NCBI GenBank assembly: GCA_024635475.1
Contig: JAGXIW010000003.1
Location: 124,001-188,000 of the forward strand
Length of the DNA stretch: 64,000 nucleotides
Reading direction: 5' to 3'
DNA from: a bacterium
Lineage (GTDB): Bacteria > Patescibacteriota > Gracilibacteria > BD1-5 > UBA6164
Shown one piece after another: positions 10,605 through 36,750 of this stretch. The notes beneath the pieces were generated by a model, which did no database searches, was not told the DNA's origin, and saw only the letters and a program-made list of their open reading frames with translations. The translations under genes were made by a program, and so were the position numbers. Position 1 is the stretch's first letter. Each line of letters begins with the position of its first letter.

Positions 10605-11492
10605 TTATTGAATTACAAAAAATTGTTTTATTTTCTACCAATCTTTTTCATTTTGATTCAATAAAGAATCATTAAAATTTTCAAAATTATCAAAAAAAGG
10701 ATCTTGTTTAAATATATCGAATATATCCTCATTGTTACCTTGATTTTTCTTTCAAAAATTATTTCAATTTTCTTTTTGTTCTTGTTTTAATTGTTCATTG
10801 TACTGTATCAATTGTTTTTTTTCTTCTTCGTTTAATTCTTTTAGTTTTGAATCTTTTTTGATATCGTATCAGTTTCATTGTCCACTTTTATTCTCTTCCT
10901 GGACATTTTCATCTTGTTTTTTTTCTCAATCTTTTTTATTATCTTCTTTATTATTATCTCATTTTTCTACTTTTTTTTGATCCTTTTCTTCATTACTTTT
11001 ATCTCATTTATTTTCTAATTTATTAAGTTTTTCATTTACAAAATCATAGTTCTCTTTTGTCTTTTTATCTTCCTTTTCATCTAACACTTTTTTATAATTA
11101 TCCAATGATTCTTGCCATAAATTTGCTTTTGTTTCTATATTTTCTTCTTTTTCTCAAAGTTTATAAAATACATTTCATAGATTGTAAGCCATTTCTAAAT
11201 CTTCTTTTTCTCAAGTTGCAGTTTTGATTTTTTCATAATACTCTATTGATTTTTTGAAATCTCAAAGTTTGTAATAATCTCATCACAAATTGTAATTAAT
11301 AGTATTGTTTTTAATATTATTTTCTGCTTTTTTATGATAATCTAATGCTTTTTTATAGTCTAGATTATTAAAATTGTAATTTCATAAAACATTATTAAAA
11401 AATCACAAAAAATTGTTCGCATTAAAAAATAAAGCTAAAATTATGAATATAGCTGATAGAAATAATATAATTTTATTATTTATTTTTACCAT
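10605..11492 (-). CDS. TPR protein of the Bat/vWA cluster
   Basis: 295 residues: a hydrophobic N-terminal anchor (about 7-24), two or three tetratricopeptide repeats ('NYNLGDDYYKLGDFKKSIEYYEK' type, about 45-130), then a long charged Lys/Glu/Asn/Gln-rich tail. This is the layout of the TPR partner found beside BatA/BatB (BatC/BatE type). The start codon lies inside the end of the vWA gene (17-base overlap), which points to coupled expression. It is probably a periplasmic or cell-surface scaffold tethered to the membrane. In other bacteria Bat proteins are linked to stress and envelope integrity; the role here is inferred from the neighbours. Confidence 0.78.
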
Positions 11493-12444
11493 ATCTAAAC
11501 AAAGAAGTTAAATAAATAAGCAGAAACAAAAATGAAACAATAACAAAATTTCTAGTTAAATCACTATAATTTTCTTTATTTGTAACAAGTACTTTTTTAG
11601 ATACATCTCTCAACAAAGATGCAAGATCTTTTATATTTGATAATTTATCTAAGTTATAATAATCTCAAGAAAAGAAATTTGCTATACTTTTTAAACTATT
11701 TTCATTTAATTTTGTTAGGACTTTTTCCCCATTGTATGTTTTGTAAACTATCTGTCAAAAAGGATCCTGTCAAATTGGGATATAAGCTCAGGAAGTAGTT
11801 CAAACTCAAACTACAAGTAACTTAACTTTTTTATTATTTTTCAAATCACTTAGTTCAGTTAAATCAATGCTATTTTCATCGCTTCCATCTGAAATCAAAA
11901 CTAAAGCTCCAAAATCATTATCATCTGTAAAGTTTTTAAATCAGTCTTTAATTGCATCTTTTAGATTTGTTCATTGTTTTGAAACATTATTTTCATCTAC
12001 TGAAGTAAGTATCGTTAAAAACAGATTTTCATCATCAGTAAAAGGTAAAGTTCTAATAGCATCTCCAGCAAATACTACTAAACCATACTTATTTCATGTG
12101 TTTTCAATTATAAAATCATTTATAAATTCTTTTGAAGCTACAAGTCTAGAGTATGTATCTTTTTTTTCTTTCATATCCATTGCATTCATACTTTTTGATA
12201 CATCCAGTACAAAAACTATATTTGTTCACTCTTTTTCTATATTTTCTTTTTTTAATGATTTTATTCAAAAGATAGGAAGAAGTAATATTAAAAACGAGAT
12301 AATCAGAGATACAATTCAATAAAATCTCTGTTTATTTTTTGTTTTTTTATACTCCAAAAATTGAAAATAAAATACAACTAAAGATATTACAAAAAGTAAT
12401 ATAAAAATTGTGATTGAGAATTTATTTAAGTTTGAGATTATCAT
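11476..12444 (-). CDS. BatB-like membrane protein with von Willebrand A domain
   Basis: 322 residues. Two N-terminal transmembrane segments (about 10-28 and 44-62) are followed by a vWA domain starting with the metal-ion site 'FVLDVSKSMNAMD' (DxSxS) near residue 80, with 'LISDGSDEN' as a later metal ligand, and by a C-terminal membrane segment ('NFVIVSFLFLLIYLTSLF'). This is the BatA/BatB architecture. A second vWA gene lies upstream and a TPR gene overlaps the 3' end, so the three very likely act as a complex at the membrane. Usual Bat loci also contain a MoxR-type AAA+ ATPase, which is not seen next to these genes. Confidence 0.87.
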
Positions 12445-12501
12445 AAAAAATTAATATTTTAAATTTTAGAATTAACATTTTCGATTTGTATCAATGGGAT
12501 T

Positions 12502-12574
12502 CTTAAGGGGTAACTTCGCCGTAAAACGATTATCAAAACATACTAGCATCTCTGCGAAGATTTACCGCCTTAAG
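12502..12574. repeat. Imperfect inverted repeat in a Bat intergenic gap
   Basis: Arms at 12502-12519 (CTTAAGGGGTAACTTCGC) and 12554-12574 (GCGAAGATTTACCGCCTTAAG) can pair with small bulges. The CTTAAGG and CTTCGC words also occur in the TGTCATTCTGAG-bounded elements elsewhere in the window, so this may be a decayed relative. The rest of the 190-base gap holds short A/T hairpins only. Confidence 0.5.
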
Positions 12575-12634
12575 CATTTTTCTTACTTTTTATGCAAAAA
12601 GTAAATGTAATTATATTGTTTTTCTAAAAAGAAA

Positions 12635-13627
12635 CTATATCCTTACTTTCTTAAAAAGTAAAACTATAAACATACTCTCTAAAAACAATAGTACATAGTA
12701 AAAATACTCATACTTTGTCTCGTAGAGCTTTTTTATCTCAACTTCTATATCCTTCTTTTCAATTTTATCTATATCATCAAATATCTTTTTAAAAACTTCT
12801 TTTGAAGTTGCTCTATAATACTTTCATCATGTTTCTGATGCAATTTTTTTTAGAGTCTCTTCATCTATTCATCATATTTCAACTTTTTGTTTGTTTCATA
12901 ATACATCATACACATAAACAAATGTCTTTTCAAGTCATCAAATTCATATAGTATAAGACTTGATTTTTTTATCTTTTAATAATTTTAGTGCGATTGTAGG
13001 TTGTAATCATTTATTTGCTTCTCAATCAGTTACAATTATCATAACTTTTTCTCTATTTTCACTTTTCTTATCAAATAAATAACTTCCCATAAGCATAGCA
13101 TCTCACATCGCTGTTCATTGCAAATTATAAGTATTTTGATTAATAGTAAAAGTATTTATACCATTTACATATTCTTTTAAAAATCCATAATCAAAAGTCA
13201 GTGGAATAGAAGTAAATGGTTTTCCTGAAAACACCACTAATCAAACTCTATCTGTTTTTAAATTTCAAAGAAAATATGAAATAACATCTCTAGCTACACT
13301 TATTCTATTTGGATCTAAATCTGTAGCTTCCATACTATAACTTATATCAAAAACAAGTACAATATCAATACCATTTTTCTTGATTTTTTCTGTGGTACTT
13401 TTTACATTTGGATTAGCTAAAATAGTTACATACAAAATACTTATGAGCAATAAAAGTAGAAAAAATGAATAATAATAAAAACTGTTTTGTTTGTAAACCT
13501 GTTTCAAATCTTCAAAAAATGCAAATTTAATCTTATTTTTCTTTCTAACAAACAAAAATCCTATTACAAAAAATAATGGAATTAAAAGTAAAAAATATGT
13601 TTTATCTAAGAAAATTAAATTATTCAT
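12635..13627 (-). CDS. BatA-like membrane protein with von Willebrand A domain
   Basis: 330 residues with two transmembrane segments near 8-26 and 53-72, a vWA domain opening with 'VLVFDISYSMEATD' (MIDAS DxSxS), a conserved 'GTAMGDAML' threonine loop, 'IIVTDGEANKG', and a C-terminal membrane helix ('YYVLLFLESMFIVLLF'). This is the BatA layout. It is the promoter-proximal gene of the BatA, BatB, TPR group on the minus strand and starts 73 bases from the divergent ksgA. Its role in envelope stress or protein assembly is family knowledge; nothing here shows the partner or substrate. Confidence 0.88.
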
Positions 13628-16110: not shown

Positions 16111-19100
16111 CTATTTAACTATATAATTTCACTCAAACACTTTCATAAGTACTTCTCAAACATATATGTCTTTTTTGCTATCATAAAGTTTAAAAACTAT
16201 ATTATCTCAATAATTACTATACTCTAACTTATAATTATCATCTTTTGTATAAATCTTTCAATCTGGAAATATACTAAATAATGCTGTTTTATTTAAGTCT
16301 GAAGCAGAATAAATAGATATAACTCATGGATTATATGGAACCGTTAATGGTAATTGATAATAATAATAATCACTATAGTTATCTATCTTTACATATATTC
16401 ATTCTGTATCTATATCTTTAAAATTATCAACCTCCGATAAATCTCCTAATCCATTAAAATTAAAATATTGATAAAATATATCTCAAGTATTATCTCACAA
16501 AATCATTTTTACATATGATTTATCGTTCTCATTATCATTTGAAGGTAATACTTTTATTTTTCATCAAGGTAAATTATTTATAGTTATCTTTCAAGTATAT
16601 TCATTCACAGATGCTATATTTATCCCATCTTTCGTTATATTTAATCATTTATTATTTTCTGGGTTTAATGAGAAAGTATATGCTCCTGAAGAATTTGTAT
16701 AAATTTTTTGTGTTCAAATATTATCCAAAATCTTAGAAATAACTCATCACCTATATCTATATAAATTTACTGGTTCATTTGCCAGTTCTTCTTCTAATTT
16801 TCAAGTAATTGTAGTTCACGTATAGTTTTCTATTTCCACATCTGGAGAATATACTTCAAATCATACTTGTTTATAATTTACATTTCAAGCTAAGTCCTTC
16901 AATGTTATTCAAATATCTTTACTAACTAACTCTTCATAAGGACCAAAATCAGCTTTTACTGTTTTTGTTGTAATTTTTATATTTGGCTTATCTAAATCTC
17001 TATCATTAGTAGTATCTCAATCACTATCTGAATCTATTTTCAAATCCATATCAATGTAGAAATCACTAAATCAAGATGTATCATATAAATAAGGAGTAAA
17101 ATTATATGTGTATTTTTGATAAATTGGTATTTTTATAGATTCATCTAAGTGAAGATCAGGTTTTGTTGTATCAGATGATATCTGAGGTGACAATAAAACT
17201 TGACTAGATCTAGTTCATAAAATTCATTCTTTAAAAGGAAGAGCTCTAGAATAATAGTAATCGTTGTCTTCTTTTATATATATCATATAAGTAGTTTTTT
17301 TCTGTCATAAATCGTATAATTCATATTGTCTAGTATCTCTGAAATCTATATTATTTTCAGTTCAATCATAATATCTTATATCTATATGTGAAGATTCATT
17401 AAATAATTCATTGTCTTTTTCTAATAATATCTTAGTTCAAGAAAATAATGGTAAGTATAAATGATCTTTTATTAATTGTCATGATAAAGTCTTTTCATCT
17501 TTTCATTCAACATAAGCATTTCACTCTAAAGAAAATATTCTAATTTTCTCATTAAATTTTATGTTATTATAACTGCCTACAGTTATTTCATTTTTATCTT
17601 CTGAATCTCATTTATAATATCATAATATAAATGGGGTTCTTCATGCATATAACTTTGTATCTACAGATATAGAAGCAATACTTCAACTAGATAAGCTTTC
17701 CTTTATATTTTTTGCTTCTTTTGTTGTTAATTTTATATCATCATTTATAGTATTTCAAACATTATTTATATATGCTATATTTTTACTTACTATATAACCT
17801 GTTTGACTTTTCTCTTTTATTTTGGTTATATTATCTACATCAGCAAATGAATCAATTATGTTTTTCTTTATACCTTTTGGAATATATTCATCATGATTTT
17901 CATTTAAATATTTATCAATTATTGAGAAAAATTCTAATCTAAAATTATTTATACTGTTATCTGTTGGTGCATCAAAAGAAAAATTGATAAAAGAGTCAAA
18001 AGATACAGATTCTTTGATATTATTAAGTGCTTCATAATAAATATCTCAATTAAAAAATTTATTATCATCTATATCTAATACCAAAGCATCTGATATTTCA
18101 TTTTTTGTTTTGACTTCTCTTTTTGTATTTTCTTTTATATATAATTCACCTTTTACCATATACAATATATCTTCATCTTTGTCATTATCAAAATCAACAT
18201 GACCAATTTCTTCTGATCATCATAATTCTTCTATATAATCAAACAATCTATAATTTTCTTTTTTCGGTTTATCTTCTTCTGACAAATCTTGTTCATCTTT
18301 TATTTCTTGAGGAGTCATTTCCTCTAGTAATTTTTCTTTTTTTTCTACTACATAAATTCATTTATAATTATATTTATATATTTCACCTCCTGTTCCAGAA
18401 CTACAAGTAGAAGCAATTCAAGTTGAAGTTGTTGTAGTATATTGAGACTCTTGTTCATTTAAAGCAACCAATTTTTCCATAGAACTATTCAATCAAGCTG
18501 AAACTCTTGCTAATAATTTAGATCAATCTTGTTTTAAGTCTTTTTGTTCATTATTTTTATCAGTCAATAAATTCATTGTTGCCTTAACAGTTTCAAAATT
18601 ATGTTTTCTCATTAATTCATTGTATCATTCTACATTTGAATCAGTTATACTATCTATAAATTTTATATTACTTTTATTTTCAAAATCTTTTATAGATTTT
18701 ATTTGTTCTTTTGTAACTTGTTTTTCAGTATTTATTATACTTTTTAGAGTATCAAATTTAGCCTTATTTTTCTCTTTTAAGTCATTTATAAATTTATCTT
18801 CTTTAGAATAAGTCATGTTTGCTACATCTTTCCATAAAGTTCTTAATTTTCCTATATTTTCTTCACTTCATAAATTTTTGCTTGCTAATCATTTATTAAC
18901 TAGAGATATAAACTCTTTATTTGATACTGTTTCCTCATTATTATTTTGTATGTATGAATATATGTTATAAAATCCGTACACAAGAAATTTGGCTAGATTA
19001 TTTCATTGTGTTAATTCAGCTTTATTGATTACCTGTTCTCAATTAACATTTGTGGAATTTGATTTTTCCAACATACCCGATGTATCTCATAAATCTACCT

Positions 19101-22100
19101 CTACAGTATCAGGTAATACATTAGAGAAATCTAAATCTGGTAGTTTATTATTAAATAAATTAACAATATCATTTGTAAAATTATTTAAAGGTTTAACTCA
19201 TTGTTTTACAAATTCTAGTATAAAATCGGCTTCAACCTCAAAATTTACATAAGTTGTGACATCTATAGAATCCACAAAAGCAAAAGAATATTGTGGTAGA
19301 CTCATATCCAAAAAGTCTAGAGACATAAACCCTTGTCTATCTGTTAAATAAGCTATTTTGGTTCAAGCTGTCCATTCTGGAGCAAATGGAGACTTTTGTA
19401 ATAAACATTGTATTTTTGTTACTATTTGAAGTATTTTTATAACTACTTCTATAACAGAAAGTATCTTTGGTAATTTTGGTGGTGGTGGTAAGTTTGGCAA
19501 TTCAACAGTAGGTAGAGTAGGTAAATCTGGTAATTCTGGGATTTTTAAAGAAGGAAGTATCGGTAGAGTTGGTAGTTTTATTTTTACATTAGGAATATCT
19601 GGTAGATAAAGTTTTGGTAGATAAGGAATAACTATTGGTCTAGTATTGAAATTGAAATCAGGTAATGTAATATCTAATCATACTTTTATATTATGTAAAT
19701 CAATAACTATATTTGGCCATTTAGGAAATTGTATAACTGGGATTTTTGGAATTATCATACTCACAAGTTTCCATATAAAAGTCCGTAAATCAAATCTCTC
19801 ATTTTTACATTCTTTACAACTTTTATCATATTCATCAAACAAATCAAGAATAATTTGCCATGATTTTAATATAGCTTTTATAAGCACATATAATTCAACC
19901 CAAGCTTTAAACCTCTTACCGTTAGATCACAACCGTCCTCAAAATAATTTATATATAGTATCAACACTACACATAATTTGATTTAACCGATCTTCTTTTT
20001 TATTTAATAATTTTACTAAATTTTCAGGGAATTTTTTATATTCTTCAATTATTGCTATATTTTTATCAAGAGATCTTATAAGTGCTTTAGCATCAACTAT
20101 AATACTATCTCAAGCAGATTTCTGAGCATCATCTAAAGATCCCCGTTTATTTTTAACTCTTTCTAATTCTTCTTGCCGTTGTTTTTTTGTTAATTCAAAA
20201 TTGATTTTGGCTTTCAATAAAGAAGTCTTTGTTATCCAAGGTACATTTACATTTACAGTTTGTGATTTTAGATTAACCATTGGAAGACTTCAAATAAAAT
20301 CATACACAGCTTTTATTCCAGAAGTTGTTTGAGATGGATTAAAATCTTTTTCTAACACTTGTTTTTGTTGTTGTAATTTAAGTGTCATACATTCAAAATA
20401 TCAATCATCAGATTCTGTTTTTTCACTACAATTCATATCTGATATTTTTTCTTCTGTCTTCGCTAAATCATCTGATAAACCTTGTTGATTAGTAGCCCAT
20501 TCACTTTTTCAACTTTTAAAAGCATCTGTTATTCAGTCAAAGAAATTTCCCCATTTGTAATCTGTTATTCAAGAAAAATCTGGTAATATAACAATTAGTG
20601 ATGGAAAACTTGTCAATTTTGTAACTATTTCTGCTATCTGTCTATTAACCCATTCCATCAAAAATTGAGGAAATGAACTTATTAAAGTATTTTTCAATTT
20701 TATAACATCTTTAAATTCTCAATTAGCTAAGGCACTTACATTTATATCAGCAATAAATGATACATCCACAGTATCCCCATTTTCCGTTCAATTTCATAAT
20801 TCTATTAATGGTTCTGTTTCGATAACATTATTAGCTCATCTACCTATATCAGCAAACGAATCAACTAATCATGACATAGCTAGTTCTGATCAATTTTCTT
20901 TGTACTCAATATAATTAGACATAAAATTTTGATCAAAAGAGAAGTTTTTTGTTTCAGCTTGTTTTTTAGTGTCAACACAACTTCAATTTGTAACTCAAAA
21001 TTCTCATCTTGTTTCTTCTTTTCAAGCTCATCATCAAGTTGTTCCAAAATTTTCTGCATAGTTTTTTTCCTGTACATCTCAATCAGATCAGGCTCACTTA
21101 CATCAAGCAAAAGGAAATGCAACTATTATACATTTTCACTGTGTTCAAATAATAGGAAATAATGAAGGTGGCGACTCTGTTTCTGACTGATTGTTTTTCC
21201 CAAAACATATAGCAAGTCAAATCGCTCAAGTAATTGTAGGAGTAACAAAAAGCCTAAAATTATTTTCTCATCTTCATTTTGGAGCTCAATCAAACCGTCA
21301 TCATGCTCAGTTTGGACAAGGTGGCCAAACTTTTACATAGCCACATCAAGTTTGTAATACTGCTGAAAAAATAGGTAATCATTCTCAAGTTTTTTGTCAA
21401 TCTCATACAGGATACCCCATCACAGAAGGATCATTTCATGGAGCTAGTGGTGCCCAATTTACAGGAGTACTGATACAACCTCATCATCAAAATCAATTAC
21501 AAAGACCACTTGCCACATTATCTATTCATTCACTAACCTCATCTATTCATTCATTTATAGAGGTAAGAAAATCCTTATCATCATCATAACTTTCAGTATC
21601 ATATGATGGAGTAGCATCTTCTGTATCAGGTATTCAATCAGTATCATCATCTTCATTAACCTGCTTTAGGGCTCAAGTAGAATATTCTATAGCTTTTGTT
21701 TTATCTACTGATCAAGCACTCTCTACCAATTCATCTATATAATCAGGAACTCCATTTTCATCTTCATCTAATCAATTTTTTTGGAATTCTTCGGGCAATT
21801 CTAAAGAATCTGTATTACAAGTTGAACTAGCTGTTCATTTTTCATAAGCTCTCTTTGAAGTTGATTTGAATATATCAGGATTTGTATTACATGATTTTTT
21901 ATCTGTTTTTATAATTATATCACCATATTCATCATCTCAATCTTCTCATTTTTCAAAATAACCTGTTTTTATCTCTCAGTAACTTAAAGGTATTAAAACT
22001 ACTTCATATTCTAATGTTATTTCTTCAGATGGGGCAAGAAAAAATCAATCAATCAAGAAATTATAATCTCAAACATTGTATTTTATGCTTGCTCCTGTAC

Positions 22101-25100
22101 TTGTTCTTATATTTTGTCATTTACCTATTTTTATGTTTCATTCTTCTTCAGAAAAATTAAACATAGTTGGTATCTTTTCAGCATAAGCGAGTTTTGTTTT
22201 CACCTGTCATGAAGTATTTTTTATATTTACAACAACTTTTACTTTATCTAAAGGGTTTAATTTTCACCCATCTAAATCTTTGTATTCTTTTTTTATATCA
22301 AATCAAAAATTAGAAGCATATTTATTTCTTACAAAAGATTTACTTTGTACATTATTACCACCACCATCTACATTACTATTTGAATATTCTTCCATATCAT
22401 TAATTCAATTTGACACTGCATTATATGCACTTCAAAAATTATCATCTTGCATTTGATTATCATCAAATATATCTATTGAAGATTCATCATTTAAGTTATA
22501 TGAGACTTTATCATATATAATATTATCGGTAAATTGTAAATTTATAGATTTCTTATCAACATCTACTTCATAATCTTTGACTTGAGTTTTATTTTCCTCT
22601 TTTATATTATCCAATACTGAAGTAGTAGTATTGTTATCTAATCAATCATAATAAATAGCTCAATCTCAATCATCTTTATCTTCATTTAAATATAAAGCAT
22701 ATCAATCTCAAACTTCAAGTTTTGTAAATTTTGGTATTTTTGGAGTTCCTCATCAATAAAAAATACTTATTATTCATGCACTATCTAGTGTTACAATATC
22801 TTTTATGCCATCATTATCCATATCAAATGCTGAAGTTTTTATTATACCTCAAGACATATTAAATTGTTCTTCTAAAGGTATTTTATAAAAGTTTTTTTCT
22901 TCATTATTCAATAAATATGGTTTTCATTTAGAAACATAAAATATATCATCATATCAATCTCAAGTAAAATCTCAAGCCTCAATAATTCATCCTGCCCCCA
23001 TTTCAGGCATATAAACGAGATTTCATTTTGTAGAAAAATCAAATTTTCATCTATTTTCTATGATTTCTACATATGAATCATTTTTTAATAAAAGAATATC
23101 TTGAAGATTATCGTTATTGTAATCAAAAGTTTTATATCATACATTTTTTTCATCTTTTGATATCTGTTTTCAAATAGTACTATCAAAACTTCTAAATATT
23201 ATTTCTTCTTCTAACATACAATTTCATGGAGGTGGAAGTTCATCACCAAAACGTTCTAGATAAATTGGGCCTATCTCATTCCATCGATTTGTATGATTTT
23301 TATCTACTACACGAACATCGAATATTGCACCACCTACTTGTATTTTATCTACATATCAAAGTGGCTCTAAATATGCCTCTGCATCATATCATATTTTTCT
23401 AAGTGCTATAGCCAATCTTTGTAATGCATCTGAATCAGTTGAGGTTATTCATTTTATAGCCTTAAAAAAATCTGCAACTATATTATCATTATTTGTAATT
23501 TTACACAATCATTTTCAGGCACCCCCTTTTGTCATTGATGTTTTTTCTCACCGTTTCATCCAAGCTATTTCAGTTCTGATTTTATCTTTTGGCTTTGGTC
23601 AAGCCAAATGATATGCAAAATCACTTATTATAAATCAAACTGTTTCTCATTTTTCAGGTTTCCGATCATCAGGTAATAGCTCACTACCTTTATAACCATT
23701 AGCATGATGATTTATCCATCTTCAACTTACTATAGTATCGGTATTATGATTAATACCGCTAGGATCATTAATTGTACCTAACCACTCAACCGCGGAACCA
23801 TACCGTGTAGAACCTTTTTTTACTATAACAATAATACTAGCAGCTTTTTGCTCTGGTTCTAAAGTACGATATTTTAATATATTACTAATTTCCTGATCAA
23901 ATTTAATAATTCCTGGCCGAAAATCTGGGGAAGGATTAAATACTTTAAGATCTGATTTAATTTCCCGATCACAAACATTATCTGTATCTGAATCCCATTT
24001 TATATCATTACAACTAGGTTTTTTATCTTCATTTTCATCTTCTTCTTTTTCTTTACATTCTCCAAATTTAGCACTTTCTTCTCCATCACCCCACTTCATC
24101 CATGCTATTTTACTTTTTATTGGTTGATTATTTTTTACTCACATTCTAACTAGACCACTCATTACAAATCAATAAGTTTCTCACTCCTCAGCTTTGACCC
24201 CTTTATCAAGTAAAAAGACATCTGACTTTTTTTTACTTTTTTGATTTGGCCTCATCCGTTCCCATGTACTTGCTTTCCATTTACCATTTTGTTTAAAAAT
24301 TACCCATGGGTTTGCGACTACAGGGGAGTCTTCAGAATCATACCGCATCTTATCTTGTAATATATTTGTAATTTCTTGATTTAAAGTTATAGCCCCTCAA
24401 CCTACTTTTACATCAAGATCTGATTTAACTTCCCGATCACAAAAATTTATTCAATGCTGTTCTGCATCAACCCATTCAATTTCTTCACAAGTTGGTGCTT
24501 TATCACATTTTTCCATATCTGATGGAAATTTTTCTTTGACATTTTTTAGTTTTACAACTGGATCTCAGAGATTTATAAGTGAAAAAGAAGCATATTTTTT
24601 TGTTGATTCTCATACTGTTTCTCAAGCTGCATAAAGCAATAGAGATTTATTTGACTCACTCCACCCTGCCTTATAATTTTCCTTGAATGATTCATATGAG
24701 AATCAAGGGGTTTGAGAAAAAATGTTTAAATCGTTTTCATCTGCAAAAGGATCATTATAATAAATAGCCAAAGCACTATTTTCTTTTGATTCAAAATATC
24801 TACTTCAATATTTATTTGAATCAAGATAAACTATTATTGAGTTTTTTATTGAGCTTATTTTAGATTCAAGTATTTTATCATCCTTTGTTATATTTAATTT
24901 TCAATCAATCAAATTGTAAGAAAAAATTCCCACAACATCATCTCATTCTTTTATTGAAAAAATCACTTCACTTGAATCTTCTAAATCATTCTCAGGTTCA
25001 TAATTTTCTATAGATACAAAATTATTATTTGATATTTCTCAATCATTATTAACTTTAAAAATTATATCTCAAAAATTGTTTTTCAACAATAAATCATCTC

Positions 25101-28100
25101 AATCTTTTGATGCGGTATAACCTTCTTGTACCGATTTAATTAATATAGTAGTATTTTCTAAATCCTGTGAACAATCAGTAAATGTAATACCTGTTTGATT
25201 ACAGACTTTTAAATCATTTCAGTTATCTAAATTATAATAAATTTTACCTAAGTGCTCACTTAAGGCATAATTGTATATATCAAAATTAAGTTTTTTGTTA
25301 CTATCTATATTTGTTATATATCATATATCCTGTGTCAAATTTTGACTATCTTGTACAGTTTTAATTTTTCAGTTTGAATTTATCCAAATTATATCATTAT
25401 AATTATATGGATTATTTAATAGACTAGTTACAGTCAATCATCTATTGTTTTTGTCGAATAAAATTCCTCAAGCTAAATAATCTTTTTGTGTTATATCTCA
25501 ATACTCTGCTCAAAGTAATACTGTATATAAAGAATTATAATAATTTCAATCTATTTTATCTTTATTCCAGAAATAAAAAGTTTCAAGTTTTGCTATATTT
25601 TCATCTTGAGCAGTAACTCATATCTCATTTTTTTCAATCCAAAAAGCTTTTAACACTTCTTGGACATCAATAGATAAATTCAAAAAAACTTCAGACTTTT
25701 CTAAATCTTCTAACTTGTAAAATCTAGAAACATAATTATATCTATCATATTCTGTAAAAAATATTTTTCAAGTTGATGTCAATTCACCTTTATCCGTAAA
25801 TCCAGTCATAGTTTCTAGAATATTTTTTTCAAAAGGAGTTTGTCAATCAATTGTAAAAGATGATTCAAATCAAGGATCTGCTTTAACTTTTATATAAGCT
25901 TGTCAAGGTTTTTTTGTTGCATTTATTTTAAAAAGTATTGATCACGAAGAAACAAATGTAGATCATGAAGAAATAAATTTTGATCAAGATGATAGAAGTA
26001 TTTCTCATGAATTAGTTGATCAAGAAGAAACAAATGTTGATCAAGATAATACAAATGGTAACGAGCTAAATGTTGATCAAGTAGATCTAAATGTTATTCA
26101 AGTAGATGTTGCTCATGTATTTATGCTTATTATATCTTTATACTCTGCTCTTATTTCTAAAGATAATTTAGTTGAATTATCATTAAATACTATATTTCAA
26201 TACCTATCCTTTAATTCTGCTTTCAATGTAGCATAATCAGTTTCTTTTGCTTCTATTTTATTTTTATTTAAAATCAAATCAATTTTTATAGGCTTTTCTG
26301 GTAATATACTAATGTATTTTGTATAAATATTTTTTAATCATTCTATTTGAAAAGATAATTTTACTTCTGAATTTGCTACAGTTTTAGTTGTAAAATACAC
26401 TTGTCAAGTTCATGAATTGACATCTACAAATGATTCTTTAGATTTTCAATATATTGAATTCAAAGAAAGATATAATCTTGAATTGAAATCTGTCATAATA
26501 TTTCAGTCATCATCTCTAACTGAAAATTTATATCAATATACTCCTTTTCAAACTTTTATTTCTGTTTGAAGAGGTTGTAAAAATAAATGAACACCTTCAA
26601 CTGTTTCAACATTATTTTTTACTTCTAATACATCATCTCAAGAACTATTTTTTATTTTAAAGATTAAAGTATTATCATCTGTTTCATCTGTTGTCCTAAT
26701 TCTAAATATCTTAAATCACTCTAACATTTGAAAATCTATTTTATCATCACCTTCATTATCTTTTACAAATTCAACTCAATCTCAATCTACTTCTCATTCG
26801 ACTTTATATAAATCAGAATTAGCTAGATTTCAATACTTATCATAAACTATTAAAAAATTTGTAGAAACAACTCATCAAACTTCCAATATACTTGATCATA
26901 ATGTAATTTCACCACTATAGACTTTATCTGCCTTAACTTGAAAAGTCTTACTAAATTTAAATCATTCATTATCTTCTACTTCTAGAGTATATTCTCAAGA
27001 TTTTTGTAATGTAACTAAACTAGCATATTCTTTGATATTGCTAAAATTAAAATATTTTGTTAGTATCTTTTCATCTTTTTTATATAAATTTATTTCTAAT
27101 GGATATTTTAAATCTATTTTTGATCAAGATTCTGTATAATTCTCTAAAGAAAAAATCAATTTTTCTTTAGATTCTGATGATGAATCAATTTTTTCTTTTA
27201 TATCTTCTATGTTTGTATTTTTCCCATCTGATATATAAATATTAGCTGAATCTGATGCTAAAATTGTATCTACTCAAGATGTTATATTTATATCATCCTC
27301 TTCTTTTTCTATTTTATAATTTGTTGCTACAAAATTATTTCACCTTATTTCTACCTTTATAATTTTTTCTAAATAAACCTTTTTTGTACTTTTATAATCT
27401 TTTAATTCTATAAAAGCTTTTATGTAAACATCTACATCTTTATTTTTAGCAGAAAATGCATATTGCCCCTCTCATTTTGAGATTTTTATATAAGAATCAT
27501 TGAAATTAATATATTTATTAGCTTCATTTCTTTTCTTTTTTATTTCTTCTTCCGTTCATACTCAAGAAGTAAAAATATTTGTCTTACTTCAGTCCAAATT
27601 AAGTAAATCTAGTTTAGATAATTCTACATTAACTGTTGTTGAATTATCCGCAGATATAATATCTCCATTTTTATCTTTTAAAGCTATATTTATAATTCAA
27701 TTACTATTATATGCATATTTTGTTGAATCAGTTAATAAATCAAGGAATCAGCTTGCTAAAGATTGTTCTATACAATCATTTATACCATTTTTATCAAAAT
27801 CTCAATTACATGCTTTTATTTCTTCACTTTCTAAATCAAGCCATCCATTATTAGAACTTCATCATGCTCAACTTGTTGAACCTCAAGTGATTCATCATAA
27901 TTCTATTTCTTCATCTGAAAATAAAGAATTAGTTGTACATTCTGTTTGTCAAATTTTGATAGTTGGAGGCATTACAGTTCCAAGCCAACATATTATTGCT
28001 GGAATCCATTCCCATATAGGTACTCATTCTGGAGGACCACATTCAAATTCCCCAGTATCTTCACTATTTCCAGCATCATCATAACTATCTCACAAATTAA

Positions 28101-31100
28101 TTCATCACAACATATTATCTAAAGAAGCATTTTCTGATTCTTCTTCTTTATAAGGACTTCAATTTGTTTTTCATTCTGGATCCATTTTTACATACATACT
28201 TGTAGCATTTCATGGAGCTCCCATATATGATAATTCATACATTTTTTTATTTTTTGGTAATCCATACTTTTCCGTATTAGTGAATTGATCAGATAAATAA
28301 TTATCCAATATAAAAGCATATTTTTCTGATATATTATCTATATTTTTCCAATACAAAGCAAATTCTAGAGTTTTAAGATAACTAATATCTTTTTGACCTC
28401 AATCAAAACTACCTGTACTTACTTTAAGGTCTTTTAATTCTTTATATAAATCAATCTTTTTAGCCTTTCATGATAACATATGAGTTGTATAAACACTTTT
28501 ATAAAGGTCGTATAACTCTTGAGTTCATGTCCACTCCATAAACAATTTTGGCATTCATTGATTCATTATTACACCATTTATATCCTCTGATGTTTTATCT
28601 AAAAGTTCTTTAAGTTGTACTGATACATTTTCTATAGTATTCTCTTCATCATTTTTTAGTCCAAATCTAAATAAATATGGATAATAATTTATTTTTTTAT
28701 ATGCTAAATTTCTTCAAATAAAATCAACATATCTATCTTTGTCTATAGGAACAGCATCAGTAACAATTCACTTTACTTGCTTTGATAAAGTTGTTGAACT
28801 AGGTGAATCATGTTTTATATATGAAGGAATTGTTTTATATTCATATATACATCATCATTCTTCACTACCAGATCAAGAAGCTAATTCACCTGGTTCATCT
28901 CATACAGTACAAGATGTCAAATATTCATGAAATGGTCCTAATACAACTAACTTACCATCATTATCACTTACTGGTTTCCATAATCTTCAATCTGAAAATT
29001 CTTTCCTTTTAGATCAATCTTCTACAACAAAATTATATTGAGGGTCATCAAAAGTAACCGATATACTATTTCAATAATCTTTTCAAGGCTTTGAAAATCT
29101 AAAATGAGTTCTATCTCCATTAGGTTGAGTTGCATTCGATGAAGACCCAGCAGAACCTCATACTTGATCAGTGTTGTTTCAATTAACTCAATAAGAAGAA
29201 ACTAAATTTCAATCAACAAAAACTCTAGAATATTTACATTCGCCTGATCCAGATGCAGAAGATTCAGTAGATTCAGATCATGTAGTAGGATACTTTTCTT
29301 CTAAATTTTCCAAAAGCTCAAATATATCATTATAATCAACTGTTCAAGGAGCTAATACATTTACACCACATCAATAACCTTCAGATATGTTGTATCATTT
29401 TTCTGAATTTTCAGTCATAATTCATACTCACTCATAACAATCTAATGGAGAAAATACAAAGCTATCCTCTCAATCCATACGACCTACAGTATCATGACAT
29501 TCCCCATCAACACAAACCTCACAAGTATCTCAATGATCTCCATCTATCAATATAGATAAGTTATGTGGGGCATTATCTGCTGCTGATTTCCATAAAAATT
29601 TTTTACTTGCAGCATAATTAGTAGGATAACGATGCGGAGAACCAGGATTAGATGGTTCATTACCTGGTGGAGCTCCTGGGTTTGCAAATGTTTTTTTATC
29701 TACAATTTCTCACCCACAAATAATTTCAACAGTACATGTTTTTCATTCTCATCAACAATACTTATCTCATTTCTTACTAAAACGATATACAAGTCTATTA
29801 TCACCTCCAGCTCAACAAGTTTCTGTAGTCTTGATTGATCATACTATATCAAACAAAGGAGTAACCGATGCCTTAAGACTATGTTCTTTTAATCTATACA
29901 AATTATTATTTTTACTAACAGGATCATCTTTCCAGAGAGATAATGAAGATCAAGTTTCTGTATCTGTTTTTATATTGTCATCCATATTTATAGGACTATT
30001 TCATCCCCAAATTCACATAGTTGAACATACAGTATTATCTCAACATGATTTTAAACAATCTGTTCATACTTTATCATAATCTTCTTTAATGATGTTTATA
30101 TTGTATCATCTGTTTGCTTCAACTAAAGTTCATTTATTATTATTTATAGTTCATTTAGATGATCATCTATAAATACTACAAAATTTTGCATTTTCTATAT
30201 CAGCAGCTCTAGTTCAATAAAAAAAGTTTTCATATCTAATACAATCATATCAACATGACGAAATAGGAGTATAAGTCATTTCATCTGAATCAGATGGTGG
30301 TTCAGCTTCTCATTTATCACCACAACCAATTTTAACATCTTGTGTAAAATTAAATGGAGCTTCATTTGTCCATTCTTTTTCTTGCTTATCTTGATAAGCA
30401 ACTACAGAATAATATACAGTTGTATTAGCCTTTGGAAAAGCATATGTTTTACCATCTCAACAAGTTATATAATTCCATCAAATCTTATTATCTCATGGAT
30501 ATACACTTGAATCTGAAACAAAATAAGCATTATCCCTTATCAAATGCCACTTTCTGTTTATAAGCCGATCTTTTCTAACCTTTTTTCATCAGGGTGTTAA
30601 ACTCACATAAATACGACCTGTTTTTCATTCATATGTATCAGTTACTGTTTGATCAAACAACAAAGCTGGTTCTGGAGCACCATTATAATAGCTTACTGAT
30701 AAACTTGAATTTGCAGATAATTTTGGTAAAAAAGGAAATGATTTCAACAATGGATATATTTTTTCATTATTTCAATTTCATTTATATGATGTATTTTGAC
30801 TATCGCTTGATTGAGGATGTCAAGCTGTAAATTTCTCAAACATAATTATCTTACTTGATCATCATTCTTTGACAACAGAATCTATTTTATTTTCCAGTTT
30901 ATCATTTACATTTTTTATAACTTGTTCTGAAACCAAGTCTAGAACAGAAATCAAAAGAGGTATAAAATCGGCATTTACCTTATCTTTAGGTTCAGAATAC
31001 CTTCAAGCATTATATATATTTTTTCTTAATTCTCATAAAGCACTAAAATTAAATATTTCTATAAAACTTTTTATGTTTTCAGTTATTGGATATCTTGATA

Positions 31101-32526
31101 AAATATCAGGCGTTTTATTTAAAGTATCATCTCATTGATAATCAGATAATCATGCTTTTCAATCAGTAAAAGTAACTGTTTGTTCTCATCAATCCCATCT
31201 TATAGTAGCAGTTTCCAATTCAACATCTGCTGGTCATAAAATTACCAAATTAGTACCTCATTCACTTATAGGTTTCCATAATCTTCAATCAGACATAGCC
31301 ATCCTTTCAGCTCAATTAGGCACTTGAAATTCGTATTCATTACAATCAAAATAAACAGTTACATTTTCCCCATAATAAGCCCCAGGATGATCAAATCTAA
31401 AATGGTATCTATTACCATTAGGTTGTTCTCATGGCTCTGGATCATCTTCTTTTTTTACTCATATTACATCTCAATTCGGAAGCACTGTCCCAGAAAAAAC
31501 ATCAGTTATATTTTCTGTTAGTTTTTCTTCTTCTTTTCATAAAACCTGATCTTTTACTTTTTTTGCTAAATCTTTAGAAAACCTATTATATACTAAATCT
31601 TCTTCATTTTCTTTTTTTGCTTTATATCAATTATAATTAATAGCATTTATAGCTTCTATCTCTCTAAATTGATCAAAGTAAAACACATAAGGAACATATG
31701 ATTCTAGTGGTTCTTCTTCTGGATTTCAATTTATCAATCATTTACCACTTTCATCATCAGTTTTTAATCCCAATAATGATTCTTTTGGACCAAACAATCA
31801 CTTTCCTATATAAAAATCATGATTTTTATCAAAATAATCTTTTATAGCATCTATATCATCACCTTCATCTCAAGTATTTGGAGATATAACTCAGTGCCAA
31901 ATTTCAGGTTCTATTTTTTCATTTAAATTTTCTGATTTTTCATAAACTTCTTTTTCGTGATTATAAACATAAGTCTTATTATCAAAATCAGTATAAGGCA
32001 ATACAGTTTTTGAAAAATTTTCTTGATTTTTTACCACAGGTAATGGAACATTTCAAACAATTAATGTTCAAATTAATTTAGATTCAAAATCAATATCTGG
32101 TTTTACTGATTTATATCATTCATAATACAATGATTCAATAAGTGATGCCACTTGAAAAGCTGAAGCATCTTGAGGTGTAGGAATAAGTACAACTTTTGTA
32201 TTAGCTAATACTCATTCTATATCTTTAGCATATCTCTTTAATTCAGAATCAACACTACTATATATATCATCATCAACTATTATAGAAACAAGATCATAAA
32301 AATCTTTATTTTCAGCATTTACTTTTGGAGTAAAAAATTGTACAAAAGGAATTCTAAGTCCTAAATTAAATAATATAAAAAATATTAATGCTCAAGATAA
32401 AAATTTTTGATAGTGTGAATAATCTCATTTTTTTATATTTCAAAATTTTAAAGTCTTAAAAAAATCTTTTAATTTTGAATATTTAAAAAGATCTTTCAAA
32501 AACATAAAATCTTGTAGTTTTTTCAT
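16111..32526 (-). CDS. Giant membrane-anchored surface protein (5,471 aa)
   Basis: A single frame of 5,472 codons. I split every codon and found no TAA or TAG before 16111-16113. ATG at 32524-32526 follows the dnaE terminator. A short cytoplasmic tail and one transmembrane anchor (about 42-65) suggest that the rest is outside the cell. Visible regions: a peptidase-C25/caspase-like segment with 'GTLIVGNVPLPVV' (about 70-150); a duplicated module (363-440 and 1133-1203); beta-sandwich-like stretches; a Ser/Gly/Thr repeat (about 2132-2200); tandem Cys-containing modules (about 2675-2995); FG-GAP-like calcium repeats (about 3122-3255); DxDxDG loops (about 3585-3650); a Pro-Leu stalk (about 4299-4361); and further calcium loops to the C-terminus. 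Likely adhesion or host contact; this is inference. No family is recognised over the full length. Confidence 0.88.
19445..19630 (-). other. Giant protein: proline-leucine-rich stalk
   Basis: About 60 residues (4299-4361) with Pro at every second to fourth position ('LPTLPILPSLKIPELPDLP' and 'LPNLPPPPKLPK'). This composition favours an extended stalk or wall-spanning segment. Confidence 0.7.
22760..23160 (-). other. Giant protein: FG-GAP/VCBS-like calcium repeats
   Basis: Three units with calcium-loop signatures: 'FDYNNDNLQDILLL', 'GDFTGDGYDDIFYV' and 'FDMDNDGIKDIVTL' (residues about 3122-3255). Such repeats usually build beta-propellers of surface adhesins. A further unit 'VDFDNDKDEDILYM' lies near 18180. 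Confidence 0.75.
23540..24500 (-). repeat. Giant protein: two tandem Cys-containing modules
   Basis: Two consecutive modules of about 150 residues share 'CDREVKSDLDV' / 'CDREIKSDLKV', 'NQEITNIL' / 'DQEISNIL', 'GETYGFVMS' / 'GETVGFIIS' and 'IAWMKWGDG' / 'IAWMKRGEK'. Tryptophan, arginine (CGG) and GGN glycine codons are more frequent than in the flanks, so this part may have a different origin, though TGA glycines still occur. I do not recognise the fold. Confidence 0.7.
25930..26130 (-). repeat. Giant protein: Ser/Gly/Thr tandem repeat linker
   Basis: About 65 residues (2132-2200) made of imperfect repeats of the type 'SSGSTFV', visible in DNA as recurring GATCAAGAAGAAACAAATGT-like words. Glycines here are TGA. 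It looks like a flexible or O-glycosylatable linker between beta-rich regions. Confidence 0.7.
28920..29130 (-). repeat. Giant protein: duplicated module, copy 2
   Basis: About 70 residues (1133-1203) beginning 'QPNGDRTHFRFSKPG' and ending 'DGRLWKPVSDNDGKLVVLGP'. It is the partner of the module at 31210-31440, separated from it by about 690 residues. Confidence 0.75.
31210..31440 (-). repeat. Giant protein: duplicated module, copy 1
   Basis: About 76 residues (363-440) beginning 'QPNGNRYHFRFDHPG' and ending 'DGRLWKPISEGGTNLVILGP'. A second copy, clearly similar over the whole length, lies at 28920-29130. The pattern suggests a beta-rich domain. Confidence 0.75.
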
Positions 32527-32667: not shown

Positions 32668-35600
32668 CTATACCCAAAATTCCTTCTCCCAAGAAATTAT
32701 TTTTTCTATTTCACTATCTTTTAAGGATATTTTTGTATCTATCTTCTGTCATTTTAGATCAATAAAAATTTTTATTTCTCAAACTTCCAAAGACTGTAGA
32801 AAAGTCTTTAAATCCTGTAAATCTGTTTTTTTTGCTTGGGTTGGAATATGAATAATATATTCACTATGTTGTCATTCTGAATGTAATGAAGAATCCTTTA
32901 AACTTTGTTTTATATTATTTACACCGCTTAAGGGATCCTTCGCTTTGACTCAGGATGAAATAGAAGTATTATTATTGTCTCATTCCATATTATTTTCAGA
33001 ATTATCAGTATTTTCTAATATTTCTTCCTTATTAGTTATTCCAGAGTCTAGCTCGAGAATGACATCATTTTTACTAATTATTCTCATTCATCTTTTTTCA
33101 TTATCAAACATAGATAAATCACGAGCTTGATCTCTCACCTTTGATAGAGTAATTATTATAGATTTTCTTGATCCTATAGCTCTTCTACCATAATCTAAAT
33201 CTATATTCAAATTTCACTCCACAATTACAATTTTAGATATAGCTACACTATCTTTTACATCAGAAAATTCTCTATCAAAAACAGTAACTTCAAAATCAAA
33301 ATCAAATCATTCACAAGTCAAAAACATCATATTTTTACCTGTTTTTGTTACTATTTTTCTTACATCAGTGATTACTCATATAGTTTTCACCATTTTTTCT
33401 CTTATATCACTTAAAAACTTCTTTTTATTTTCCTCTGTTTTTTCATTTTCGTAGAGTTGTTTTATCTCATCAAGTGACATTTTTAAGTATTTTATATTGC
33501 TTGATCTCTTGTCACAATACCTTTTCAATCCATCAAGAGGATGCCCAGAAACCATAAATCATAAAACTTCTTTTTCGAAAAAAAGCTTTTCTTCATATCT
33601 TATTTGTTCCTTATTTTTCAAAATTAGGTTTTCTTCATAATTAGAATTATTCATATCAAACAATCCTATTTGCAAAGTATTTTTTTTACTTTCGTTTCAT
33701 TTTGCAAACCTCAAAATATCTTCCATATTATAATAAACCTCTGATCTATCTCATAAATCATCTAAACTTCAGGATTTTACAAGAGCTTCAAGAGATTTTT
33801 TATTTATCACTTCTTTTCAAACAAGCTTAACAAATTCCTGTAGGGAATTAAATTTTCATCATTCCAAAGTCTCTCTAGTTTCAATAATCTTGTTTATAGG
33901 TCAATCTCAAAGTCATTTTATTGCTTTTAATCAAAATCTTATATTACTATCATCTATATAAGTAAAATGTTTTAATGATTCATTAACAGATGGTGGCAAT
34001 ATATTTATAGAATTACTCAAAGCCTCTGAAACAGCCAAAGAAATCCTATCTAAATCTTCTTCATCTGAAACCATCATAGCAGTTATAAATTCAGTTCTAT
34101 GATAGGCTTTTAGGTAAGCCGTTTGATAGGCAATAAGAGCATAACAAGCAGCATGAGATTTATTAAAACTATAATCTGCTGCAGGCATTATCATCTTCTC
34201 ATAAATTGTTCTTGCAGTTTCTGGCTTGTATCACCTAAAAGTTGCTGATTTGTTTATAAATTCTATTTTAAGTTTTTCAACTACATCTTTTTTCTTTTTT
34301 CAAACTCATCTTCTAAGCATATCGGCTTCAGCAAGAGAAAATCAAGCCATTGCCTGAACTATTCTCATAAGTTGTTCTTGATAAACGGCAATTCAATAAG
34401 TTATATCCATAAAGGAACTTAAATCTTCAAAAAGCTTAGTTCTCTCTTCTTCTATCACTTTTTTTCAATATTTTTTTTCAAGTTCTTTTGCTAGATCTGT
34501 GTACATATAATCAATCTCTTCTTTCCCGTATTTTCTATTTATATAAGTTTCAATAAATTGCATAGGTCATGGACGATAAAGTGCAACCATCGCAATTATA
34601 TCATTAAAACTTGTTGGTTTTAAATTTCTAAGCCACATTCTCATACCATCAGACTCAAATTGGAATACTCCTGTTGTATCTCCAGCCGCAAATATATCAA
34701 GTACTTTTTTATCCGCTAAATCAATTCATAGTACATCTAAATCTATATTTTTATTTTTTTTCAATATTTTTCCTGTTCTTTTGATAATACTCAGGTTTCT
34801 AAGTCCCAAAAAATCCATTTTTAGAAGTCCTAAATCTTCAAGTGGATAAGCTGAATATTGTGTAATTATAGTTTTACTATCTTTTGGTGGATGTTGAAGT
34901 GCTGTATAACTTGTCATCTTTTCTGGTGCTATAATAACAGCACAGGCATGAACTCATATTTGTCTTACATTTCATTCTATTTTTAAAGCATTATCTATGA
35001 TTTCTTTGTATTTTGGATTTTCTTCATATGCTTTTTTGAATTCTATTCCTTCTTCCAAAGCTTTGATTAGCTTTGTACCTGGTTTTTCTGGAATAAGTTT
35101 TGCGAGATCATTCATCTCAGCAAATGGAACTCACATAACTCTTCATACATCTTTTACTGCTGCACGAGCAGCAAAAGTACCAAATGTACAAATTTGAGCA
35201 ACTCTATCTTCTCAATATTTATTTCTACAATAATCAATAACTTTATCTCTTCAATTATCAGCAAAATCCGTATCTATATCCGGCATCGAAACTCTAGCTG
35301 GATTTAGAAATCTCTCAAAAAGCAGATCAAATTGTAATGGATCTATATCTGTAATTCAAGTTAGATAAGCAAGTAATGCACCCGCAGCTGATCATCTACC
35401 CGGACCTACAGGGATACTATTATTTTTTGACCACATTATATAATCTGAAACTATAAGAAAATATGTATCAAATCACATCTTATGAACCACAAATAATTCA
35501 TACTCCAATCTATCTATTCTATCTTTGGTTATTTCATCTAGTTTTTCAATTATATCTTTCTTTTTCTCAGTAAAAAATTCTTTTGAAGCTACTCTTAATT

Positions 35601-36750
35601 CTTCTACTGTTGAATCTTGAAGCGATTTAGTTAATGGATCAATATTTGTTTTTTTTATAAATTCATCTATGGTTTCGTTTGAAAAATTTGTTTTAAATCT
35701 TTCATTCATTCAATAAAAACAAAGATATCTTAGATACCATTCATCAGAGTTTAGGGTTTTAAGTTTTTGAATATGGTGTTGTCATTCTGAGAATTTCTCT
35801 GAAGAATCACTTGAACTTTGATTTAGTGATTTTACATTGCTTGAGGGATCCTTCGTATTCACTCAGAATGACATAGAAATCAACTCATTATTATACTTTT
35901 CCTCAATCTCTTCTGGCAACTTAAAAACGGGAATAAGTATCTTTCACATCTCTATTTTTATATTGATTTGTGATGCTATTTTTTCAGTATTTTCAAGTGC
36001 TTGTGGGATGTATCAAAAAATGGAATTCATCTCTTGTTCTGACAAAAAAGAATAATCTCCATTTTGTAGACTTGGTCTATCATGATTATTTATTTCATGA
36101 CCAGTTCATAGAGCTTGAATAACATCCTGAGTTTTTTTGTCTTGTTTTTCTATATAATAACAATTATTCGTAGCAACTACTCCTAATTTATATTTATTAT
36201 GAAGCTCTATCAATCTATTTGTTACCAAATCTTGTTTAGGAATATCTTTGTGATCTAGTAATTCAAGATAAAAATTATCAACTCAGAATACATTTTGATA
36301 AGCTTTTACTCTTTCTATTATCTCTTCATCTTTTTTCCCAGAAAGTATATAAAACGGGACTTCCCCTGAAATTGGTCAACTAAGAGCTATTAAATCATTT
36401 GCAAATGGTTTAATATTTTCTAAAGAGATTCTACCACCTCAATCCAGATTTGTTTTTGTTATTATCTCAATTAGATTATTGTATCAAACCTTTGATTTAG
36501 CTAAAAGTACCAATTTATGATTTATATTTTTATCTAAGCATCATTCTATAAAAATCTCTGATCATAAAATAGGATTTATGCCATTATCTTTGGCTTTTTT
36601 ATAAAATTCGTGACATCAATAAACATTCATAGTATCAGTTATAGCTACACTTGTCATACCAAGAGCTACTGCTTTTTTAATATAATCTATTGGCTTTGGT
36701 AGTCACTCAAGAATAGAATAATGTGTATGATTGTGTAAGTGAGTGAACAT
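32668..36750 (-). CDS. dnaE: DNA polymerase III alpha subunit with two repeat-derived inserts
   Basis: 1,360 residues, longer than usual (about 1,160). It is the replicative polymerase subunit. The N-terminal PHP domain starts 'HLHNHTHYS'; catalytic aspartates lie in 'PDIDTDF' (Asp491, Asp493); '[13 protein letters not shown]' and '[18 protein letters not shown]' are typical of the polymerase core; an HhH and OB region follow. Two palindromic repeats are read in frame: residues about 293-324, between PHP and polymerase domains, and about 1264-1294, after the OB fold. They add related peptides ('[11 protein letters not shown]' and '[11 protein letters not shown]', both ending 'SEGQH'). The frame is open throughout. 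A terminator follows. Confidence 0.95.
32870..32959. repeat. Palindromic repeat element inside dnaE, copy B
   Basis: The element begins TGTCATTCTGA and ends ACTCAGGATGAAA, with the core CGCTTAAGGGATCCTTCGC. It is read in the dnaE frame as about 30 residues near the C-terminus, ending 'DSSLHSEGQH'. The ends are a little more decayed than in copy A. Confidence 0.8.
35780..35873. repeat. Palindromic repeat element inside dnaE, copy A
   Basis: A 94-base element bounded by TGTCATTCTGAG and CTCAGAATGACA with the core TTGAGGGATCCTTCG. It is read in the dnaE frame and encodes about 31 residues including '[11 protein letters not shown]' and 'EKFSEGQHH', just before the conserved 'YLRYLCFYG' segment. 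Confidence 0.85.

What the first reader, a model, noticed from the sequence alone, without database searches (positions are those of the whole stretch)
16111..32526. A 16.4-kb single gene for a 5,471-residue surface protein
All in-frame codons were split and no TAA or TAG appears over 5,471 codons, which cannot be chance in such AT-rich DNA. One gene takes a quarter of the window, in a lineage with small genomes and an episymbiotic or predatory lifestyle. A single N-terminal anchor with an enormous multi-domain exterior suggests a host-contact or capture device.
Basis: partly seen in the sequence, partly recalled or inferred. Interest (0 to 1): 0.92.

Follow-up and report, generated by a model that had tools for sequence, protein, structure and literature searches.

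The report
Conserved giant secreted surface protein of Gracilibacteria
One intact 16.4-kb gene makes a 5,471-residue secreted surface protein that turns out to be a long copy of a single-copy giant protein kept across most of a whole class of tiny, probably host-dependent bacteria, and whose job appears never to have been described or tested.

Summary
The gene is real: minus strand, window 16111-32526, ATG to TAG, genetic code 25, 308 in-frame TGA codons and no internal TAA/TAG; the other two frames of that strand carry 441 and 440 stops. It is not unique. Homologues with the same domain order, usually one open frame, were found in 78 of 79 close relatives and about 200 of 288 sampled genomes of the class (Gracilibacteria, Peregrinibacteria), and almost nowhere else in the phylum. 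Standard-code relatives have uninterrupted frames of 3,900-5,850 codons, so code misreading or misassembly is excluded. The 'N-terminal anchor' is better read as a cleavable Sec signal peptide. Behind it lies a gingipain/PorU-like (C25) fold without a conserved catalytic cysteine, then Ig-like, FG-GAP and calcium-motif regions, and a very conserved helical/LPxLP core without detectable relatives. Peregrinibacterial homologues end in S-layer-homology domains, which the window protein lacks. They sit in an operon with secreted proteins; relatives of two of these are encoded elsewhere in the window's genome. Best reading: a class-wide core envelope fibre, probably adhesive. Host contact is plausible but unproven. 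Giant surface proteins were already known in this group; the conserved orthologous family and its anatomy appear undescribed.

The parts
16111..32526 (-). Giant gene, 5,471 codons, code 25, ATG to TAG
32314..32526 (-). Long-n-region Sec signal peptide, residues 1-71, predicted cut after ...KVNA
   Evidence: Hydrophobic run 41-66; small-x-Ala site in 53 of 60 homologues
31492..32301 (-). N-terminal alpha/beta domain, residues 76-345, gingipain/PorU (C25)-like fold, no conserved Cys
   Evidence: Alignments A2/A4, model, VIA-align top five rows all C25 family, no Cys
30829..31131 (-). Second half of the N-terminal domain, residues 466-566 (conserved NAGRY motif)
31183..31425 (-). Lineage-specific insert module A, copy 1 (residues 368-448)
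   Evidence: 48% identical to copy 2; otherwise found only in same-genus L037
28885..29127 (-). Lineage-specific insert module A, copy 2 (residues 1134-1214)
26173..26283 (-). Ig-like stretch, residues 2082-2118, weak match to GH2_C5 / Invasin_D3 / Big_1 (below curated cut-offs)
   Evidence: the same families in homologues
24100..24492 (-). Insert module B, copy 1 (residues 2679-2809)
   Evidence: 30% identical to copy 2; relatives in L037 and L042
23551..24015 (-). Insert module B, copy 2 (residues 2838-2992)
22792..22971 (-). FG-GAP (integrin-alpha-like) repeat, residues 3186-3245, E 2.8e-15, over cut-off
   Evidence: in 9 of 11 full-length homologues
21616..21768 (-). Two thrombospondin-3-like DxDxDG calcium motifs, residues 3587-3637
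19156..21579 (-). Most conserved core, residues 3650-4457: Cys/Gly/Pro-rich part, long helices, beta hairpin, LPxLP stretch
   Evidence: no PDB match
19468..19644 (-). LPxLP proline-rich extended stretch, about residues 4295-4353
   Evidence: Many invariant prolines in A1/A3; extended at pLDDT about 80
16114..18279 (-). C-terminal beta-rich part, residues 4750-5471; lies just before the SLH domains in peregrinibacterial homologues
32668..36750 (-). Neighbour upstream, DNA polymerase III alpha subunit (dnaE); beside the giant gene in some same-family relatives

Best explanation
Shown: one intact gene encodes a Sec-exported giant protein that is a single-copy core component of this bacterial class. 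Inferred: after signal-peptide removal it is held at the cell envelope as a very long multi-domain rod or fibre. The head is a catalytically dead gingipain-like domain. The stalk is Ig-like, FG-GAP and calcium-binding modules. A rigid helix/LPxLP core lies in the C-terminal third, and the C-terminal end is towards the wall. In Peregrinibacteria that end docks on pyruvylated wall polymer through SLH domains; in the window's lineage the SLH domains are missing and attachment is by the core, by the C-terminal beta part or through secreted partner proteins. The fibres make part of the coat through which these cells touch surfaces and hosts; insert modules that vary between species would tune binding.
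For: Frame integrity and size in relatives. Presence in 53 of 53 high-quality close relatives and 154 of 223 high-quality genomes of the class. Signal peptide. Adhesion-type domains: FG-GAP, Invasin_D3/Big_1, TSP3. SLH in 7 of 11 scanned homologues, C-terminal in the two whose positions were listed, with SLH matches and a pyruvyl-transferase gene in all 18 genomes tested, the window's own included. Secreted operon partners, two with relatives in the window's genome. Giant membrane proteins and a fibrous surface described in Vampirococcus (PMC8080830).
Against: No protein-level or microscopy evidence. The window member itself has no SLH or other recognised anchor. Some families (f7, f10, f16) of the same class seem to lack the protein, so it is not indispensable to the class. 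The core has no known relative, so 'stalk' is inferred from a middling model (mean pLDDT 69.5). An enzymatic or secretion role for the unassigned two thirds is not excluded.
Confidence: 0.55

Rival explanations
1. A dedicated host-capture or predation device: the exterior binds specific host cells and is needed only for attack.
For: Adhesin-like domains; species-specific insert modules; predatory relatives with giant surface proteins (PMC8080830).
Against: Near-universal, single-copy and strongly conserved in the core across many families, unlike host-range adhesins, which vary fast; no host or phenotype known for this genome.
Confidence: 0.25
2. A housekeeping S-layer-type scaffold: the protein mainly builds or spaces the cell coat, with no direct binding to other cells.
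For: Core-gene distribution, C-terminal SLH in peregrinibacterial members, S-layer-domain proteins reported for a closed Gracilibacteria genome (PMC6851277).
Against: Typical S-layer proteins are much shorter (general knowledge); SLH absent in the window member; FG-GAP and invasin-like domains point to binding.
Confidence: 0.3
3. Part of an export or surface-assembly machine: the PorU-like domain and the secreted operon partners handle or attach other surface proteins.
For: Fold match to PorU and gingipains; operon of secreted partners.
Against: No conserved cysteine in the C25-like domain, so no PorU-type transpeptidase or protease chemistry; type 9 secretion genes were not looked for.
Confidence: 0.1
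4. Artefact: several genes joined by reading TGA through, or by misassembly.
For: A few relatives show one frame break (L039/L115, L074, L088, L139).
Against: Standard-code relatives have one open frame of 3,900-5,850 codons with no stop; a closed, hand-curated genome (CP042461, PMC6851277) holds a 4,161-aa homologue.
Confidence: 0.01

Closest known systems
Giant membrane proteins of Vampirococcus lugosii (Absconditabacteria; PMC8080830)
   Same: Very large (1,392-4,163 aa), predicted surface location, integrin/FG-GAP type domains, related lineage.
Large extracellular proteins of Peregrinibacteria (PMC4736985) and 'huge proteins' statistics (PMC11573180)
   Same: Peregrinibacteria are noted as enriched in proteins over 5,000 aa, uncharacterised; FG-GAP annotation and Cys-rich large exported proteins.
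   Different: No family, domain order, N-terminal fold or operon described in the passages read.
Gingipain / PorU family (peptidase C25)
   Same: Predicted fold of the N-terminal domain: RgpB Z 10.6 over 132 residues at 2.5 A, PorU Z 8.2, Kgp Z 8.1.
   Different: About 13% identity; no catalytic cysteine; no Pfam C25 match. Works, if at all, as a binding or structural domain.
SLH-anchored surface proteins (PF00395)
   Same: Peregrinibacterial homologues carry C-terminal SLH repeats.
   Different: The window member ends before that point and has none.
Streptococcal antigen I/II stalk (recalled from memory, a lead only)
   Same: Long helices together with a proline-rich extended stretch could pack into a rigid stalk.
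   Different: No sequence or fold match found; not tested directly.

Membership tests
Peptidase C25 (gingipain/PorU) | Caspase-like alpha/beta fold | tested here: met
   Top five VIA-align rows are RgpB, RgpB, PorU, Kgp, Kgp, Z 10.6-8.1; next row 7.9, Rossmann folds 6.6 or less. Foldseek alone gave no significant match.
Peptidase C25 (gingipain/PorU) | Catalytic Cys-His pair | tested here: not met
   No Cys conserved in even 30% of 61 homologues; the window domain has none outside an insert.
SLH-anchored surface protein | SLH domains in the protein | tested here: not met
   Window protein: none. Seven of 11 homologues: yes.
SLH-anchored surface protein | Pyruvyl transferase (CsaB type) in the genome | tested here: met
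   PF04230 in all 18 genomes, own E 3.4e-27.
FG-GAP / integrin-alpha-like repeat protein | FG-GAP repeats over Pfam cut-off | tested here: met
   57.1 bits against cut-off 26.9, two stretches.
FG-GAP / integrin-alpha-like repeat protein | Complete seven-bladed propeller | not tested
   That region was not modelled.
Classical S-layer protein | Forms a two-dimensional lattice on the cell | not testable with these tools
   Needs electron microscopy.
Vampirococcus giant membrane proteins | Sequence homology to the V. lugosii proteins | not tested
Antigen I/II-like helix/polyproline stalk | Helix packed against polyproline helix over a long distance | tested here: inconclusive
   Helices and extended LPxLP predicted; packing not inspected; VIA-align rows all below Z 8.

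The most novel reading that the evidence does not exclude
A class-defining contact organelle: the giant fibre with its dead gingipain-like head and LPxLP core, together with the co-conserved secreted partner proteins, forms one multi-protein surface structure found only in this class and used for epibiotic attachment.
Probability: 0.22. Interest if true: 0.85.

Novelty: new variant of a known kind. Interest (0 to 1): 0.62.

Why it matters
How these reduced bacteria touch and hold their hosts is largely open. A single-copy giant gene kept across the class, in genomes that have shed most of their metabolism, marks a core surface function and gives one defined target, with alignments, domain borders and partner genes, for proteomics, tomography and binding tests. 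It may also account for part of the reported excess of huge proteins in Peregrinibacteria (PMC11573180), which stay unassigned there.

Tried and rejected
Artefact by code or assembly: rejected through standard-code relatives and a closed genome. A membrane anchor at the N-terminus: rejected in favour of a signal peptide. Pfam, NCBIfam and PDB sequence searches on the core and on the N-terminal domain gave nothing useful; the scattered NCBIfam matches of full-length homologues to other large repeat proteins look like shared TSP3/DUF11/SLH-type repeats and were not used. Foldseek gave no significant match for either model; a VIA-align second look helped only for the N-terminal domain. The hypervariable PTD-repeat gene of CP042461 is a different gene: no PTD runs lie in L086. 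A conserved gene neighbourhood across all Gracilibacteria was not found: downstream genes differ by subgroup (glycan and T4SS-pilin-like genes in several f1 relatives, housekeeping genes in others).

Full report
OBSERVATION. The open frame lies on the minus strand at 16111-32526 and runs 5,471 codons from ATG to TAG under code 25, with 308 TGA codons. The other two frames of that strand carry 441 and 440 TAA/TAG, so chance is excluded. In the core, TGA positions align with glycine in standard-code relatives at the same rate as GGN positions do. The window is bases 124001-188000 of a 583-kb contig of a 1.35-Mb, eight-contig genome. Named close relatives are titled Candidatus Gracilibacteria.

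NOT A UNIQUE GENE. The first 1,400 residues find matches in 78 of 79 related genomes and in all 53 of high quality. I fetched stretches around the matches in 40 genomes. Thirty-five complete homologues, the window's included and one fused frame left out, measure 3,902-5,471 aa, median 4,265, with the same blocks in the same order. The window copy is the longest of these; some more distant relatives are longer (below). A profile of the most conserved part (window residues 3930-4455, alignment A1) matches 195 of 288 genomes sampled across the class; a wider profile (A3) matches 201, and 154 of 223 of high quality. In a sample of 380 genomes of the whole phylum only members of the class match, apart from two marginal hits. 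Relatives without TGA reassignment show one uninterrupted frame of up to 5,849 codons. Named standard-code loci L141, L143, L146-L148, L150, L152 and L153 carry both the N-terminal domain and the core in one frame. The closed genome CP042461 (PMC6851277) carries a 4,161-aa homologue (L086). A few draft genomes show a single frame break (L039/L115, L074, L088, L139), most simply sequencing errors, though real breaks are possible. Families f7, f10 and f16 of the class gave no match or only marginal ones.

ANATOMY. (1) Residues 1-71: a long basic n-region, a hydrophobic stretch and a small-x-Ala site. Across 60 distinct homologues 59 have the hydrophobic stretch and 53 the site within 16 residues of the mature domain. 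This is a Sec signal peptide, not a lasting anchor. (2) Residues 76-345 and 466-566: an alpha/beta domain. The model is confident (first 160 residues mostly above pLDDT 90). Foldseek found nothing significant, but VIA-align ranks RgpB, PorU and Kgp first to fifth, Z 10.6 to 8.1, above a designed protein (7.9) and Rossmann folds (6.6). The catalytic cysteine is missing: no Cys is conserved in 30% or more of 61 sequences. (3) Insert modules A (368-448, 1134-1214; 48% identical) and B (2679-2809, 2838-2992; 30% identical) are internal duplicates with relatives only in L037 of the same genus and, for B, L042 of the same family; they explain part of the extra length. (4) Ig-like matches near 2082-2118, below curated cut-offs, and FG-GAP repeats at 3186-3245, well above. 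Five DxDxDG motifs, three of them thrombospondin-3-like, against 0.96 expected in shuffles. (5) Core 3650-4457: invariant cysteines and prolines, long helices, a beta hairpin and an LPxLP stretch. No relative in PDB by sequence or fold. (6) A beta-rich C-terminal part ending at a conserved strand.

WHICH END IS AT THE CELL. Pfam on 11 full-length homologues finds FG-GAP in 9 and SLH in 7. In L143 and L150 the SLH domains lie near the C-terminus (3836-3879 of 4,266; 4296-4338 of 4,535), after the part that is the C-terminus in Gracilibacteria. SLH matches and a pyruvyl-transferase gene occur in every one of 18 genomes tested. The window's genome has seven SLH matches, none in the giant gene. 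So the machinery for SLH anchoring seems to exist in this organism, but the giant protein does not carry the domain. One f26 genome (G209) has an SLH match upstream of the core in its giant frame, so the position of SLH varies.

PARTNERS. In peregrinibacterial loci the giant gene is followed by secreted proteins of about 210-300, 230-340, 580-670 and 370-520 aa. The third (A6) lies on the same contig within a few kb of the giant gene also in sampled genomes of f4, f12, f20 and f26. Gracilibacteria keep weak relatives elsewhere. In the window's genome a 549-aa secreted protein (L161 8397-10046, E 6.6e-8) and a 304-aa one (L161 3094-4008, E 7.4e-10) match partners 3 and 2. A Cys-containing secreted protein of about 430 aa is encoded next to the partner-3 relative in L161, L162 and L164. 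These E-values come from small local searches; against the whole genome the partner-3 match was 1.8e-4. Co-conservation suggests, but does not show, a complex.

MECHANISM. Best supported: an exported, envelope-held, very long multi-domain fibre that is a core part of the cell surface in this class, probably adhesive. Shown: export signal, size, conservation, domain types, SLH in relatives. Inferred: fibre shape, orientation, attachment in the window's lineage, adhesion, host contact. In Vampirococcus the roughly 100-nm gap between epibiont and host is filled with fibrous material, and giant membrane proteins are proposed to cause the fibrous surface (PMC8080830). A 5,400-residue modular protein could span such a gap, but that is inference.

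KNOWN OR NEW. Large exported proteins in this group have been reported: V. [quoted passage not shown] L086 has an Invasin_D3 match, so this may be the homologue), and a survey that finds Peregrinibacteria enriched in proteins over 5,000 aa (PMC11573180). I found no description of an orthologous family, its C25-like head, its core, its SLH variant or its partners; the library holds open-licence papers only. I therefore call it a new variant of a known kind.

Noticed in passing
window 32931-32953 and 35844-35866 (inside dnaE, 32668-36750): A palindromic repeat of roughly 110 bases (CTGAG...CGAAGGATCCCT...AGGGATTCTTC...CTCAGAATGACA) is inserted in frame twice in the DNA polymerase III alpha gene. 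Its left motif occurs 20 times in the genome against 0 for the reversed control, so a mobile element seems to be tolerated inside an essential protein.
   Followed up: partly
L063 (G066:C11), 5' end of the giant frame: The giant frame is preceded in the same open frame by about 590 residues resembling a serine recombinase; fusion or overlapping genes, not checked further.
   Followed up: no
window 10635-13627: Two von Willebrand A proteins and a TPR protein in a row, an arrangement like the BatA/B/C operon (from memory).
   Followed up: no
about 5-6.5 kb downstream of the giant gene in L082, and similar in L086, L093, L101, L103, L105, L115: Small secreted membrane proteins in tandem; the one tested from L082 matches PF18895 T4SS pilin. 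They follow a glycosyltransferase-like cluster next to the giant gene in several same-family genomes.
   Followed up: partly
L109/L110 (G034:C37): The contig carries two inverted copies of the giant gene with identical match scores, probably an assembly palindrome.
   Followed up: no
class search, family f7: Genomes of family f7 lack a clear homologue but several give marginal core matches (about 1e-4 to 1e-7); a divergent form may exist there.
   Followed up: no
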